From positions 1 through 64,000 of the forward strand of contig JAGTQM010000007.1 in assembly GCA_018396755.1 (NCBI GenBank): DNA of 64,000 nucleotides. The letters run 5' to 3'. Both the position numbers and the translations under genes were made by a program. This document shows positions 38,853 to 57,500 of the stretch, one piece after another. Within the stretch, counting starts at the first letter, position 1, and each line of letters begins with the position of its first letter. Under the pieces are notes generated by a model. That model did no database searches. It saw nothing but the letters and a program-made list of their open reading frames with translations, and was not told the origin of the DNA. Origin of the DNA: Candidatus Bathyarchaeota archaeon. Its GTDB lineage: Archaea; Thermoproteota; CALKCG01; B24.

Positions 38853-39573
38853 AGTATTACATTATATAATACGGGTTTATAAAGCTTCTTGACATGGACT
38901 ATGCGCGCTAAATCCGCTTCATGCTTAGGCTTATCAGTATGTTTGCCTAGTTAGCCTCGACATCGTTAGTCTTCCTATGCATAGGTCTCGCATCGTTTTC
39001 AATACGTTGATGAGCATTACCTTTGTGAGCTGATTCTCGCGGAATTTACGTACCATGAGGGTGAGCCATATGGGGGGATGGAAGCCTATAAGGCGTTTTG
39101 AGGGATGCTTTCTCGATCATATAGTTTAGTTTTATGGAGAGTCCGAAAGCTGGCCTGCAGCTTAGACCATCGGCTAGCTTGAGGCCCCTGCCAGTCGTCC
39201 ACCTCTTTATCATGAAGTAGTCGTTTAGAATGTATATTTGTTCTTTATAGATGGCGCGGGATGCCGTAGCGACCGCCTCTACCTCATTGAACTTCGCGAT
39301 CCCAGTGTGGTTTAGAAGCCTCTGGCCATCGATGAAGACGACGACTTCGAGCACAATGCTTTTTAGAAAGCGAAAGTAAACCTTTACAAGTAAAAGTAGA
39401 TACTTTACAAGTGTAAAGGATTGGAGTTGAGACTTCTCACGGATAATCCCCGCAAACCCCCTCTTTTTTCTTTTCCCTCTTCTCAATAATGGAGAAGACT
39501 ATTTTGACGCTCTCCACGGCTGAAGCCCATATTCACCGTTTAAGTTGAATAGGGCATAACTACTTATTAAGTC

Positions 39574-52966: not shown

Positions 52967-54223
52967 GTGGATAAGCTTAAAGTAGGGTTTATAGGTTCTG
53001 GTTTCGCCACCAGATTCCACATATTGGGTTGGGTGGGCGTTAGAAACGCCGAAATCACAGCCATATACAATATCAGGGAAAGAAGCGCCCGTGAACTTGC
53101 ATCTTTAGCTGAAAGCCTTGGCGTAGGTAAACCAAAAGTCTATACGGATATTTTTGAAATGCTTTCCAGTAAGTCTGTGGATGCGGTTTGGATAGCCAAT
53201 CCAAATTTCGCAAGGTTAGATGTTGTTAAATCAATAGTTGAAGAAGTTAAACAAGGTAAAAGCGATTTAATAGGTGTCTGCTGTGAAAAACCCTTAGCTA
53301 GAAACATGGACGAAGCTGAAGCCCTTATTAAATTAATTGAAGATGTAGATCTCCTTCATGGATATCTTGAAAATCAGGTTTTCATGCCTTCCGTGGTTAA
53401 AGGTAAAGATATACTGTGGAAATATGGTGCCAAGTATACGAAGAGACCTTATTTAGCTAGAGCTGCTGAAGAGCATGGTGGGCCACATTCATCTTGGTTC
53501 TGGAATGCTAGACTTTCCGGTGGAGGAGTTATGCTAGATATGATGTGCCATAGCTTAGAAGCAGCTAGATTTCTACTGAGCAATCCCGAGGAGTCTAAAA
53601 GCTCCTTAAAACCTAAAACAGTTTACGCTGAAATAGCTTCACTCAAATGGACTCAGGAGCCCTACAACTCGATGCTTAGAAGCAGATTTAAAGGGGAAGT
53701 AGATTACTCAAAAGAACCTGCTGAAGACTACGCTTTAGCAGTTGTAACCTACGAGGCGGAAGACGGTAGTCTAATAATATCGGAGACAAGAACCTCTTGG
53801 AGCTTCACCGGACCAGCTCTTAGATTAAGCTTCGAGGTCTTAGGCCCAGAATACTCCATGACCATTAACACTTTGCAGCCTGAACTTTTCACATTTTTCA
53901 GCCGAAACGTGAAAATACCGCCTACTGAAGAATTTGTCGAGAAGCAGGTTGCTGAGCAGGGGTTAATTCCGACGATTCCCAACGAGGCTTTCACATACGG
54001 ATATATGGATGAGGACCGTTACATGGTAGACTGCTTTATCAACGGAAGAAAACCTAGGGAAGACTGGACAGACGGACTATTGATAGTTCAATTGATGATG
54101 GCGTGCTATATGTCTGCGGAGCAAGGTAAAAAATTGAAGTTTAACCCTGAAGTTCTCAGAGGATTCATACCAGCTGTAGCAAAAGGGCTTTGGAAACCTA
54201 AGACTATAGCTGAGGCTCCGTAA
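52967..54223 (+). CDS. Gfo/Idh/MocA-family oxidoreductase
   Basis: KVGFIGSGFATRFHILGWVG, GVCCEKPLARNMDEAEALI. Confidence 0.9.
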   Translation: MDKLKVGFIGSGFATRFHILGWVGVRNAEITAIYNIRERSARELASLAESLGVGKPKVYTDIFEMLSSKSVDAVWIANPNFARLDVVKSIVEEVKQGKSDLIGVCCEKPLARNMDEAEALIKLIEDVDLLHGYLENQVFMPSVVKGKDILWKYGAKYTKRPYLARAAEEHGGPHSSWFWNARLSGGGVMLDMMCHSLEAARFLLSNPEESKSSLKPKTVYAEIASLKWTQEPYNSMLRSRFKGEVDYSKEPAEDYALAVVTYEAEDGSLIISETRTSWSFTGPALRLSFEVLGPEYSMTINTLQPELFTFFSRNVKIPPTEEFVEKQVAEQGLIPTIPNEAFTYGYMDEDRYMVDCFINGRKPREDWTDGLLIVQLMMACYMSAEQGKKLKFNPEVLRGFIPAVAKGLWKPKTIAEAP

Positions 54224-54404
54224 TTTCTTCAATGGAAATTATTTCTATTCCAGTTCTTTTCAACTTATGACGGCTCCCAAACTCAGAGTATATCTTTTCA
54301 ACAGCATGCTCCGGCTTTAAGGCTCTAACCTCTTTAACAAACCTCGATTTTTGAAAACCCATAGGCAATCTTCCTATTATGCGGAAGACTTTAATTTCAC
54401 CCAT
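54204..54404 (-). CDS. rplX: 50S ribosomal protein LX (L18Ae/L20a)
   Basis: EIKVFRIIGRLPMGFQKSRFVKEVRALKPEHAVEKIYSEFGSRHKLKRTGIEIISIEEI. Confidence 0.92.
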   Translation of the reverse strand: MGEIKVFRIIGRLPMGFQKSRFVKEVRALKPEHAVEKIYSEFGSRHKLKRTGIEIISIEEITEPQL

Positions 54405-54773
54405 GGAGACACCCCGTTGTTTAAATGTTATGCAACACTATACTGTAGATGCTGGAAAAACTAAATATACCAACGTTAGTTTAAAGTTTTCTATCTACCG
54501 TGTAAGAGTCTCAACGCTGGGAGAAAGGGAGAGTATAGGGGCTACGCAGATTTAAAGTACAACTATTAAAATGAAAAGCATTTACTTATAGCCATAACAT
54601 TATATCGTGGCGATGTCTCCCGCAAACCCCCATTTTTCCTCGCTAGCCTTTTTTTATCATCAAAATCCCTCCTTTTTTGTAAAGGAGCCTTTGAGGTACT
54701 TCTATGGTAGGGTTCAGCGGTTTAAAAACACCGAATACTTCATTTTAATTAAACAAGGAAAAGATTTAAAACT

Positions 54774-54800
54774 TCAAGCCGCGGCTGAGCCGCGGCTTGA
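54774..54800. repeat. Perfect GC-rich inverted repeat (13-bp arms, 1-nt centre)
   Basis: tcaagccgcggct-g-agccgcggcttga. Confidence 0.9.
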
Positions 54801-55693
54801 CGTACAAGTTTTATATTCATCCAAGCGCGGTGCTTCAAAACGGTAAATGGATCTGCGTAAGGTGCGGCGCCGAGTTGCCTGATAACACGTTTAAAACGTC
54901 GTTTCCATGCAGTATAAGCGTCTCAACACCGTTCGATGAACGGGTTTCCGTCGATGTTTGGAACTGCAGAGTAAGGGTGGTCGTTCACGGCGTCCATATA
55001 GCCGATTTCTGCAACGCCCAGGAGCGTAAAAAGCTTGACAGGCTTGACTACATCGTTGTGAATAGATTCCCTGGTGCAGAACAAATATTCTCCAATAGGG
55101 CCCAAGCCGAAAGAACGCTTCATAATATCTCCAGATGGAAAGAAATTGTCAATTTAAAGAAAGCCAATTTGGTGTTATCCAGACGTTTTGACTTGTCAGC
55201 AAGAGGGACTAAACATTTGGCGTTTTATTCTACAACGCCCATTTTTGGAGTTGACATGTGGAGTATAACAGGCTTTAGTGATGAAGATGCAAAAATTTTC
55301 GCTTTATGGTTCAATAGCACCTTAAATCTACTTCAAATGATAATTCACAGAACCGAAACGCGAGGAGCTTGGATGAAATTGCACGAGTACCAAATTAGAG
55401 ATTCAATGATGCTTAACCTTAAGGAGCTGACTTCTGAGCAGAGGAGATATTTGCTTGATTTGTTTGACAAACTGAAAAAGCAAGAATTTCCAAGTATTTT
55501 TGAGCAATTAAAAAGCAAGTTTCCACTAAGAGTAGAGATTGATAAGGCTATACTCAGAGTGCTTGGTTTCGGTGATGATGAGATTAATCGCACTCTCGAC
55601 TATCTTTATCCTGCCTTAGCCAATGAGATCGAACAACTTAAAAGGCTTATGGAAGGTTGGTTTGATCGAAACAGATATAAAATTTGCGAATGA
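54797..55693 (+). CDS. Protein resembling the C-terminal specificity region of a TaqI/Eco57I-like restriction-modification enzyme, probably truncated
   Basis: DYIVVNRFPGAEQIFSNRAQAERTLHNISRW ... IFALWFNSTLNLLQMIIHRTETRGAWMKLHEYQIRDSMML; no methyltransferase motifs. Confidence 0.5.
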   Translation: MTYKFYIHPSAVLQNGKWICVRCGAELPDNTFKTSFPCSISVSTPFDERVSVDVWNCRVRVVVHGVHIADFCNAQERKKLDRLDYIVVNRFPGAEQIFSNRAQAERTLHNISRWKEIVNLKKANLVLSRRFDLSARGTKHLAFYSTTPIFGVDMWSITGFSDEDAKIFALWFNSTLNLLQMIIHRTETRGAWMKLHEYQIRDSMMLNLKELTSEQRRYLLDLFDKLKKQEFPSIFEQLKSKFPLRVEIDKAILRVLGFGDDEINRTLDYLYPALANEIEQLKRLMEGWFDRNRYKICE

Positions 55694-56553
55694 AGACTAT
55701 AATGGTGTTAAATTTGTCGAGATGGTGGGTTGCTGTAGGTCCGCAAGAGAATTGGCAGACGGCATTTGAGAATGGAAACATTTGGGGGGTGCGGGCAACT
55801 CCAAAGCTTAAGGCTTTTTGGGAGAAGCTCTCTAAAGGCGATGGATTGCTTTTTTACGTGACATCTCCAGTTGGAGGCATAATTGGATACGGGGTAATTC
55901 AGACAAAGTTTAGGCAGGATAAGCCTCTCTGGCCTCAGGAAGTTAAGGAAGGTAGGATTATGTGGCCTTTCCGTTTTGAGTTTGACGTTTCCTATTGTTT
56001 GCCACAAGATAGGTGGAGAAGCGATAAAGTGGTTTTTAAAAAGCTTATCCCTCGGGGTTTTCAGCCAATAAGTGGAGAATTGGCAAATCAAGTAATCCAG
56101 AAACTGTATCCCCAAGCAAAGGTTGCAGAAGCAGAAAAAGCAAGACCCGTTGAAAAAGAGGCTTCCCTTCACGAGGAGGTTAAGGAGAAGCTTCTTGAAA
56201 TTGGGCGCCTTCAGAAAATGGTTTCTGAAAGTGAGTATGATATGGATGGGGGAAAGTTGGATGTTGTCTGGAGAAGGGTTAAAAAGGGCTTCCCCACATA
56301 CGTTTTTGAGATCCAAGTTGGCGGAGATCTATACCACGCCATAGGTAAGCTCAAACATGCCCATGACCTCTGGAACAGTAACATATTTCTCATCACTACG
56401 AAAAATGAAGTCGCCAAAGCCCAAGAGCTCCTATCAGGTACATTCCATGAAATAGAGAGAAAAATCCGAGTAATTGAAATCGAAAAAATAAACGAGTTAT
56501 TCAAACTCAAGAAGGCTTACAAAGATTTCGAATATCAGCTTGGCATTTCATAA
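55684..56553 (+). CDS. EVE-like domain fused to PD-(D/E)XK-like nuclease domain
   Basis: N-term WWVAVGPQENWQTAFENGNIWGVRATPKLKAFWEKLSKGDGLLFYVT...GIIGYGVI (EVE/PUA-like); C-term YDMDGGKLDVVWRRVKKGFPTYVFEIQVGG (D...ExQ). Confidence 0.65.
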   Translation: MRMKTIMVLNLSRWWVAVGPQENWQTAFENGNIWGVRATPKLKAFWEKLSKGDGLLFYVTSPVGGIIGYGVIQTKFRQDKPLWPQEVKEGRIMWPFRFEFDVSYCLPQDRWRSDKVVFKKLIPRGFQPISGELANQVIQKLYPQAKVAEAEKARPVEKEASLHEEVKEKLLEIGRLQKMVSESEYDMDGGKLDVVWRRVKKGFPTYVFEIQVGGDLYHAIGKLKHAHDLWNSNIFLITTKNEVAKAQELLSGTFHEIERKIRVIEIEKINELFKLKKAYKDFEYQLGIS

Positions 56554-56816
56554 CAGATTCATCAACCTTCTAAACTATAAACTGTAGCAACACAGAATTT
56601 ACCTTCGATCTAAACAAATTCTGTAATGGCCGCCTCCCTTTTCTTACGTTTCCTTTTTAGCCATGCTTTTATGAACTCTTCTATTTCCCTGCGATTGTAT
56701 GGATCTTTCCACGCGGTTTCGAGGACTTGGCACTCGTTTGTTGCACCTATTAGCCCGAAGTAAGCTGTTAGCTCAACGGTATAATACTTTTCAGAAAACG
56801 TAAGTAAAGCATTCAC

Positions 56817-57500
56817 TTACAGTGAGAAGCATTTACTTATAGCCATAAGTTCGCTACCTGAAGTCCCTCTTCCGACGACTCCGCCCTTTTGATTTACGAC
56901 TAAACCCAGTTTCACATAAGGTAGTCCATTTATCACGGTTCCAGTATGAACTGGAACATTTAAAAAGTCCTCTATCAGGAGGGCTTCATCCCGTCTTATT
57001 TTTGGATGAGCGTAAACAGCCTTATTTGAAGCTACTGCTGAAGAGCCAACGTATGGTAGATCAGCTATAGTTGAACGTTTAACTTTAACATTTAAAACCT
57101 CTTCAACAATATGTATTATATCCTCAGGTATTTGAGGGTCGACTATTGCGGCTTTGTCATTCGTCAAAATCCTATTACCTAGAGATATGAAGGTTTGTAT
57201 GGAAACAGCTTTAACACCAAGTCTTTCACGGATCAGGTCAACTTCATGCTCACAACCGTAGGGTAGTAGTACTCCGTTAGAGTTTGCTACCGATAAAGCA
57301 CCCAGGAGCTTAGACCCTCTAATCCGTAGACTTAAAACCTTATCCACTTTAAAGCATCTTCTAAGAAACTCCATCTTATTTTCACTTATACCGCTTGGAA
57401 CAAGCAGAAAATCATCCGTGGCTATTATAAAGAGACCTATGTTTGGATTGCCTAAATACTGGAAGTATTGAAGGGACACACAACTATTTTTGAAGATCAA
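56817..57500 (-). CDS. eif6: Translation initiation factor 6
   Basis: GNPNIGLFIIATDDFLLVPSGIS ... VVNQKGGVVGRGTSGSELMAI. Confidence 0.93.
   Translation of the reverse strand: MIFKNSCVSLQYFQYLGNPNIGLFIIATDDFLLVPSGISENKMEFLRRCFKVDKVLSLRIRGSKLLGALSVANSNGVLLPYGCEHEVDLIRERLGVKAVSIQTFISLGNRILTNDKAAIVDPQIPEDIIHIVEEVLNVKVKRSTIADLPYVGSSAVASNKAVYAHPKIRRDEALLIEDFLNVPVHTGTVINGLPYVKLGLVVNQKGGVVGRGTSGSELMAISKCFSL

What the first reader, a model, noticed from the sequence alone, without database searches (positions are those of the whole stretch)
54576..56848. Candidate defence cassette inserted at the 3' end of the eIF6 gene, bounded by a direct repeat that restores the gene end
Seen: aagcatttacttatagccataa occurs identically at 54576-54597 and 56827-56848. 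Read on the minus strand, the 56.8-kb copy is the last coding part of eIF6 (..LMAISKCFSL*) and the 54.6-kb copy reads MAISKCFSF*. LX, the usual eIF6 neighbour, lies just beyond the left copy. Known: integrative elements often target the 3' end of a conserved gene (usually a tRNA) and rebuild it. Inference: a ~2.25-kb element integrated into the eIF6 3' end, carrying a truncated R-M-like gene and an EVE-like/nuclease gene, with no recognisable integrase. It may be a passively mobilised defence island.
Basis: partly seen in the sequence, partly recalled or inferred. Interest (0 to 1): 0.78.

Follow-up and report, generated by a model that had tools for sequence, protein, structure and literature searches.

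The report
Decayed integrase element beside archaeal eIF6
A 2.2-kb stretch wedged between two housekeeping genes of an uncultured archaeon is a decayed member of a large family of small mobile elements that paste themselves at gene ends with a tyrosine recombinase, and each element carries, next to its recombinase gene, a short extra copy of whatever sequence it landed in.

Summary
The repeat is real: 22/22 nt at 54576-54597 and 56827-56848 (32 nt at 91%), two copies in the whole genome. The insert is an integrated element, but it is neither a stand-alone "passive defence island" nor fully without an integrase. Beside the eIF6 copy lie the last 11 codons and stop of a tyrosine integrase (56772-56807, LNGIILFRKRK*). 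Nine nt inside the left copy lies a conserved element end (54607-54631). Both ends recur across this genome and a congener (19 integrase 3' ends in this genome, mostly decayed). In all six members with both ends recognised, the outer flanks are direct repeats (scores 11-25; mismatched pairs 5.9±0.8, maximum 8.2). Two other members have empty sites in relatives. Targets include tRNA-Phe, -Ala, -Pro and -Gln 3' ends, gene ends and intergenic DNA. Cargo here: a type IIG RM remnant and an intact EVE-domain protein; elsewhere toxin-antitoxin pairs and a transporter. Unexpected: right after each integrase stop codon a 20-nt-period tandem repeat copies the local target (7.0/14 vs 3.9/14 matches; never reached in 20,000 permutations), also in tRNA targets of other genera. 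Its origin is unknown. Integration at gene ends is known; the compact multi-target family and this att layout are a new variant.

The parts
54204..54404 (-). LX (ribosomal protein L18a/LX), the usual neighbour of eIF6; left flank of the element
   Evidence: PF01775 E=3.1e-20; eIF6-LX gap at most 180 bp in 17/17 relatives with LX found
54566..54597 (.). Left attachment repeat (R3); its core 54576-54597 is identical to the right copy; it encodes the ancestral eIF6 end MAISKCFSF* on the minus strand
54607..54637 (+). Conserved left end of the element family (GTGGCGATGTCTCCCGCAAACCCCC + ATTTTT; contains an imperfect dyad, GGAGAnnTCTCC in other copies)
   Evidence: PWM score 38.5, no random hit >15 per Mb; at least 10 further copies in G000/G001
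54797..55693 (+). ORF1: C-terminal remnant of a type IIG-like (REase-MTase) protein; homology starts at residue ~80 (~55034); N-terminal ~750 aa missing; cargo relic
   Evidence: homologues are mostly 940-1020 aa frames matched only over residues ~80-293; PADLOC REase_MTase_IIG 846-925/935, E=7e-4
55684..56553 (+). ORF2: apparently intact EVE-domain protein with a second C-terminal domain (nuclease-like by inspection only); cargo
   Evidence: PF01878 EVE E=4e-4, 20.8 bits, below the 23-bit cut-off; NCBIfam PRK00809.1 E=1.8e-6; 58% identical full-length homologue in G312
56613..56789 (-). Truncated copy (N-terminus missing) of a conserved ~80-aa small protein of unknown function
   Evidence: 63-80% identical to intact copies elsewhere, incl. 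G000:C54:220-366
56772..56807 (+). Relic of the tyrosine integrase 3' end: LNGIILFRKRK* (11 codons + stop)
   Evidence: 9/11 identical to the C-terminus of the G001:C71 integrase; family PF00589
56805..56824 (.). R1: 20-nt unit beginning with the integrase stop codon, imperfect copy of the adjacent target
   Evidence: AAGCATTCACTTACAG vs AAGCATTTACTTATAG, offset 20; family-wide test
56817..56848 (.). Right attachment repeat (R2), core 56827-56848; last codons of present-day eIF6
56817..57500 (-). eIF6, target gene; intact, with its last codons and stop in att/element sequence
   Evidence: PF01912 E=1e-50; single copy
39338..39379 (+). Second relic of the same integrase family in the window (..TTTSSTMLFRKRK*), followed by its own tandem repeat (offset 21)

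Best explanation
The insert is a decayed member of a family of compact integrative elements that is multicopy in this archaeal genus. A family element has a conserved left end, one or a few cargo genes and, at its right end, a tyrosine integrase whose stop codon lies against the attachment site. Inferred mechanism: a circular element (attP beside int) recombined with the ~20-30-nt 3' end of eIF6. This left a direct repeat at both borders and rebuilt the eIF6 reading frame, changing only its last residue (FSF* to FSL*). Afterwards the integrase was deleted down to its last 11 codons, the RM cargo lost its N-terminal part and a small-gene fragment was joined to the integrase stub. The insert is therefore immobile in cis. 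It could in principle be excised by a sibling integrase acting in trans, but no full-length integrase frame of the family was found in this assembly. Shown: both repeats, both conserved ends, the integrase relic, pairing of repeats with ends in six members, empty sites for two other members, and a close eIF6-LX junction in relatives. Inferred: the recombination step, the order of decay and the cargo functions.
For: Repeat. Relatives: eIF6 and LX overlap in same-family G002/G003 and lie at most 180 bp apart in 17/17 relatives with LX found. Integrase 3' relic beside the repeat; the family is PF00589 (E=3.9e-23 for the intact 416-aa copy) with conserved HxxR and Tyr. Integrase family matches: 22 in G000, 21 in G001, 5 in G004, 2 each in G002 and G003, 0 in G005/G006. 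Conserved left end 9 nt inside the left repeat. In all six members with both ends recognised, sequence before the left end repeats sequence after the integrase: scores 21, 11.2, 18, 23.6, 11, 25.4 against 5.9±0.8, maximum 8.2, for 30 mismatched pairs. Empty sites: for G000:C35b in congener G001:C16, 91% identical across the predicted joint; for G000:C3 in G002 and G003. tRNA targets confirmed by ARAGORN.
Against: The integrase relic is only 11 codons, and its tblastn E-value alone is weak (0.03 in the few kb searched); the case rests on its position and on the other end. No empty eIF6 site in the same genus could be read: congener G001 lacks eIF6 in its assembly, and its LX upstream region diverges at window ~54501, 75 bp before the left repeat, where a different sequence shared with another G001 contig begins. 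The eIF6 tail differs in G002/G003 (..FGFGESYE*), so the exact ancestral site is inferred. Excision was not observed.
Confidence: 0.9

Rival explanations
1. A passively mobilised defence island without its own recombinase, moved by an unrelated element or by homologous recombination at the eIF6 tail.
For: Cargo is RM/EVE-like; no integrase gene is intact inside it.
Against: An integrase 3' stub and the family's left end stand at exactly the two predicted borders; siblings with the same ends carry integrases and non-defence cargo such as a transporter.
Confidence: 0.05
2. Transposition with target-site duplication by a DDE or Cas1 (casposon-like) enzyme at a gene 3' end; the repeat is a TSD.
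For: Casposons also use protein-gene 3' ends (PMC6563490).
Against: No Cas1- or transposase-like ORF in the insert; repeat lengths vary between members (11-32 nt) and coincide with tRNA 3' ends, as for att sites; the enzyme at the border is a tyrosine recombinase.
Confidence: 0.03
3. A chance or recombinational duplication of the eIF6 tail with unrelated DNA between the copies.
For: The outer 10 nt of the two copies differ.
Against: Two-sided conserved ends, family-wide pairing and empty sites for siblings.
Confidence: 0.02

Closest known systems
Thaumarchaeal integrated mobile genetic elements (Krupovic et al. 2019, PMC6563490)
   Same: Archaeal elements bordered by short att repeats; targets are tRNA genes (39/68), intergenic regions (15) and 3'-distal parts of protein genes (14)
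   Different: eIF6 was not among the targets in the passages read; here one recombinase family uses all three target types and is carried on 0.5-3.6-kb units with a conserved left end and a target-tracking tandem repeat beside int
Archaeal tyrosine recombinases (review, Badel et al. 2021, PMC8371274)
   Same: PF00589 fold with HxxR and Tyr; att identity of 8 to >100 bp; non-suicidal type with att outside the gene
   Different: The att-site section of the review does not describe a 20-nt-period direct repeat beside int that follows the target sequence
dusA-specific genomic islands (PMC4482086)
   Same: Tyrosine-integrase islands in a protein-coding gene, bordered by semiconserved 21-bp direct repeats and rebuilding the gene end
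   Different: They use one conserved target in dusA; the present family uses many unrelated targets
EVE-domain proteins of defence islands (PMC7641849)
   Same: ORF2 has a weak EVE match plus a second domain
   Different: Modification-dependent cleavage is untested; the C-terminal domain matches no Pfam or PDB sequence

Membership tests
Tyrosine-integrase integrative element (the family found here) | Direct repeats (att) at both borders | tested here: met
   22 nt exact, 32 nt at 91%
Tyrosine-integrase integrative element (the family found here) | Conserved left end next to one repeat | tested here: met
   54607-54631, PWM score 38.5
Tyrosine-integrase integrative element (the family found here) | Integrase 3' end next to the other repeat | tested here: met
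   LNGIILFRKRK* at 56772-56807
Tyrosine-integrase integrative element (the family found here) | Intact integrase with catalytic HxxR and Tyr | tested here: not met
   Only 11 codons remain here; siblings G001:C39 (416 aa) and an IMG/VR contig (423 aa) are intact. The insert is filed as a decayed remnant, not a working element
Tyrosine-integrase integrative element (the family found here) | Empty site in relatives | tested here: met
   eIF6-LX overlap in G002/G003; nucleotide-level empty sites for siblings C35b and C3; no same-genus empty eIF6 site available
Tyrosine-integrase integrative element (the family found here) | Excision as a circle and reintegration | not testable with these tools
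   needs reads or cells
Casposon | Cas1 (casposase), PolB, terminal inverted repeats | tested here: not met
   None of the three ORFs of the insert matches Cas1 or PolB; no inverted repeat links the two borders
Type IIG restriction-modification system (cargo ORF1) | Full-length REase-MTase protein | tested here: not met
   Only the last ~210 of ~960 aa remain
EVE-domain modification-dependent nuclease (cargo ORF2) | EVE domain plus nuclease domain | tested here: inconclusive
   EVE E=4e-4, below the gathering score; no PDB sequence match; single-sequence model unusable, pLDDT 41

The most novel reading that the evidence does not exclude
The family has an attachment architecture not described before: attP carries two direct, 20-nt-spaced copies of the target core (R1 starting at the integrase stop codon, and the border repeat), and R1 changes with the target. 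If R1 is written from the target during integration or excision, these integrases retarget themselves by copying target DNA into their own attP. That would explain how one recombinase family came to occupy tRNA genes, gene ends and intergenic sites.
Probability: 0.25. Interest if true: 0.8.

Novelty: new variant of a known kind. Interest (0 to 1): 0.6.

Why it matters
Integrases usually hold to one target, and how their specificity shifts is an open question (secondary attachment sites have been proposed, PMC8371274). Here one small genome and its congener preserve dozens of integration events of one recombinase family in different targets, with target, border copy and integrase-proximal copy all readable. 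That makes target switching directly testable. It also shows an uncultured archaeal genus in which toxin-antitoxin, restriction and transport genes travel as 1-2-gene units with their own recombinase, some inserted between ribosomal and translation genes.

Tried and rejected
1) Exact repeat in viral contigs: none. EVE protein and small-protein fragment in viral contigs: no relatives. 2) Congener empty eIF6 site: impossible, because the G001 assembly lacks eIF6 and S19e. 3) Left-end motif first taken for an unrelated dispersed repeat; rejected because it sits at a fixed place beside the border repeat and pairs with integrase ends. 4) R1/R2 as an ordinary inverted core site: no inverted signal at any offset. 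R1/R2 as AT-rich chance similarity: rejected by cross-locus permutation and by GC-rich tRNA targets. 5) More of the integrase inside the insert: nothing significant beyond the 11 codons. 6) Wider phylogenetic sample of the integrase: 'class' held only 7 genomes. Nine of ten viral-contig hits were distant integrases, used only as a partial negative control (none shows a clear offset-20 repeat). 7) Structure of ORF2: too poor to use. 8) A 1.9-kb left-end/integrase pair in G001:C109 shows no significant border repeat. 9) Left end of the G001:C39 element: not found. 10) The literature searches found no description of the tandem att layout, but the library is partial.

Full report
What is there. 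The window is contig C16 of an unnamed archaeal genome (1.98 Mb, 74 contigs, 89% complete). A same-family relative in the named collection is Candidatus Bathyarchaeota archaeon B24, LUCB01000002.1. The direct repeat AAGCATTTACTTATAGCCATAA is at the stated places, identical, with 0 expected by chance. It extends to 32 nt at 91% and has no third copy in the genome. The right copy is the end of eIF6. Joining the flanks at the repeat leaves an open eIF6 frame ending ..LMAISKCFSF*, while the present gene ends ..FSL*.

The junction in relatives. In same-family genomes G002 and G003, eIF6 and LX overlap. In all 17 relatives where LX is found with confidence next to eIF6, the gap is at most 180 bp. 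The window genome alone among these has 2.2 kb between them. The congener G001 matches the window from the Gfo/Idh gene through LX up to window ~54501 and then diverges. Its following 141 bp are identical to the end of another contig (C116) that leads to a prefoldin-like gene, so a different repeated sequence probably sits there in G001. G001 has no eIF6 or S19e in its assembly, so an eIF6 empty site within the genus could not be read.

Content of the insert. ORF1 (54797-55693) aligns only from residue ~80 onward to the last ~210 aa of ~960-aa proteins; PADLOC calls that part REase_MTase_IIG. It is a remnant. ORF2 (55684-56553) looks intact, with a weak EVE-domain match and a 58%-identical full-length homologue in another family. 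Its C-terminal part looks nuclease-like by inspection only; no family or PDB match supports this, and the single-sequence model is unusable. ORF3 (56613-56789, minus) is an N-terminally truncated copy of a conserved ~80-aa protein of unknown function, whose intact copies are at G000:C54, G001:C159 and elsewhere.

The two ends. A DNA search of the insert against its own genome and six relatives showed that short stretches just inside both repeats recur. The right stretch, 56772-56807, reads LNGIILFRKRK* and equals, with two differences, the last codons of a family of tyrosine integrases. A decayed copy in G001:C71 ends ..GFECVTTFNGIMLFRKRK* and matches PF00589. An intact 416-aa copy in G001:C39 matches PF00589 with E=3.9e-23 and has an N-terminal zinc-ribbon-like stretch. 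HxxR and the Tyr are conserved among copies. The left stretch, 54607-54631, starts 9 nt inside the left repeat and is a conserved element end, GTGGCGAYGTCTCCCGCAAAYCCCC, with at least 10 further copies in the two genomes.

A family of elements. The integrase C-terminus gives 22 matches in this genome, 21 in G001, 5 in G004, 2 each in G002 and G003, and none in G005 and G006. With the two relics in the window (the second at 39338-39379) I count 19 distinct integrase 3' ends in this genome. The longest frame in this genome is 219 aa against 416-423 aa for intact copies, so no working integrase of the family was seen here. For all six members with a recognisable left end and integrase end, I compared the 45 nt before the left end with the 75 nt after the integrase. 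All six pairs share a direct repeat (scores 21, 11.2, 18, 23.6, 11, 25.4); 30 mismatched pairs give 5.9±0.8 and at most 8.2. G000:C51b (22 nt, 2.1 kb) and G000:C35b (19 nt, 0.5 kb) have border repeats without a recognised left end.

Empty sites for siblings. The predicted joined flanks of G000:C35b match congener contig G001:C16 continuously at 91%; the native site there is CTAGCTTTAAATACCCGTTTAGAAC. The joined flanks of G000:C3 match G002 and G003 without interruption, while G001:C73 carries a short integrase relic at the same place. At the site of G000:C35c, the congener (G001:C39) shares the flank and the integrase region, but the sequence upstream differs: a large transporter-like membrane protein here, a Cas4-like gene there. 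The left end of the G001 element was not found.

Targets and cargo. The integrase 3' ends lie ~20-35 nt from the 3' ends of tRNA-Phe (G004:C112), tRNA-Ala (G001:C24) and tRNA-Pro (G001:C187, G000:C45), and close to tRNA-Gln (G000:C72), at the eIF6 end, and between protein genes. Cargo includes AbiEi/AbiEii-like pairs (G000:C45, C3), PIN/MazE (G000:C72) and a DUF6785/DUF6784 membrane protein (G000:C35a). A 423-aa intact relative sits at the very end of a 25.8-kb predicted viral contig in IMG/VR.

An unexpected regularity. Directly from the integrase stop codon onward there is a tandem direct repeat of ~19 nt with a period of 20 (sometimes 21) nt. The second unit is the target; the first (R1) lies between integrase and target and copies the local target, not a family consensus. 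Over 32 non-orthologous loci, identity of nt 3-16 with nt 23-36 averages 7.0 of 14, against 3.88±0.37 at other offsets; exchanging partners between loci never reached it in 20,000 permutations (maximum 5.2). Identity covers columns 0-18 and then drops to background; no inverted counterpart exists. It recurs in other genera: G003:C27 beside a tRNA-Ala-like 3' end (11/14), G002:C27 (12/14) and G004:C112 beside tRNA-Phe (12/14, offset 21). In the window R1 is 56805-56824. The published description of archaeal att sites that I could read does not mention such a layout. Possible readings: (a) an accessory integrase-binding site that co-evolves with the core; (b) a footprint of staggered excision and reintegration at the same target; (c) copying of target DNA into attP during retargeting. 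The data do not separate these.

Mechanism. Best reading: attP-attB recombination by a tyrosine integrase at the eIF6 3' end, gene end rebuilt by the element, then decay (integrase reduced to a stub, RM truncated, small-gene fragment joined). Shown are the sequences, ends, pairing and empty sites; the recombination and the order of decay are inferred. The element is immobile in cis.

Verdict. Integration at protein-gene 3' ends is known in archaea (14 of 68 thaumarchaeal elements; PMC6563490), so the insert itself is a new member of a known kind with a target gene not met in what I read. The compact, multi-target family with its target-tracking att repeat is a new variant. Interest lies mainly in that repeat and in the readable record of target switching.

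Noticed in passing
window 56805-56848, and 31 further non-orthologous loci: Tandem direct repeat of period 20-21 nt starting at the integrase stop codon; its sequence follows the local target. Origin unexplained.
   Followed up: partly
window 39338-39379 and 39426-39461: Second integrase 3' relic (..TTTSSTMLFRKRK*) with its own tandem repeat, followed by a variant of the left-end motif (CCCGCAAACCCCC); may mark two elements in tandem.
   Followed up: partly
L034:3029-3169 (G001:C37) and L162 start (G001:C116): In the congener a different sequence, shared by two contigs, starts 97 bp upstream of LX and also leads to a prefoldin-like gene: probably another repeated element at the same junction.
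   Followed up: partly
L209/L245 (G001:C39) versus L223 (G000:C35:136557-140115): Same integration site and related integrase in two congeners but different upstream sequence (Cas4-like versus transporter-like), suggesting cargo replacement; left end of the G001 element not found.
   Followed up: partly
window 56613-56789; L121:145-384; L122:812-1054: Conserved ~80-aa protein without a significant Pfam or NCBIfam match (MSRAVL..AWKDPYNRREIEEFIKAWL..), up to 76% identical to the window copy in other archaeal families; function unknown.
   Followed up: partly
window 54771-54803: Strong inverted repeat (16-nt arms, 1-nt gap, AAGCCGCGGCT/AGCCGCGGCTT) just upstream of ORF1; could be a terminator, an operator or a scar.
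   Followed up: no
L269 (IMGVR_UViG_3300034378_000255, 25.8 kb): Predicted viral contig whose end coincides with the stop codon of an intact 423-aa integrase of this family, so the family may also serve viruses or larger elements.
   Followed up: no
G006:C17:12949-16834 and G055:C11:15259-18562: Homologues of ORF1 (full-length RM frames) and of parts of ORF2 lie within ~3 kb of each other, suggesting that the two genes belong to one restriction-type system.
   Followed up: no
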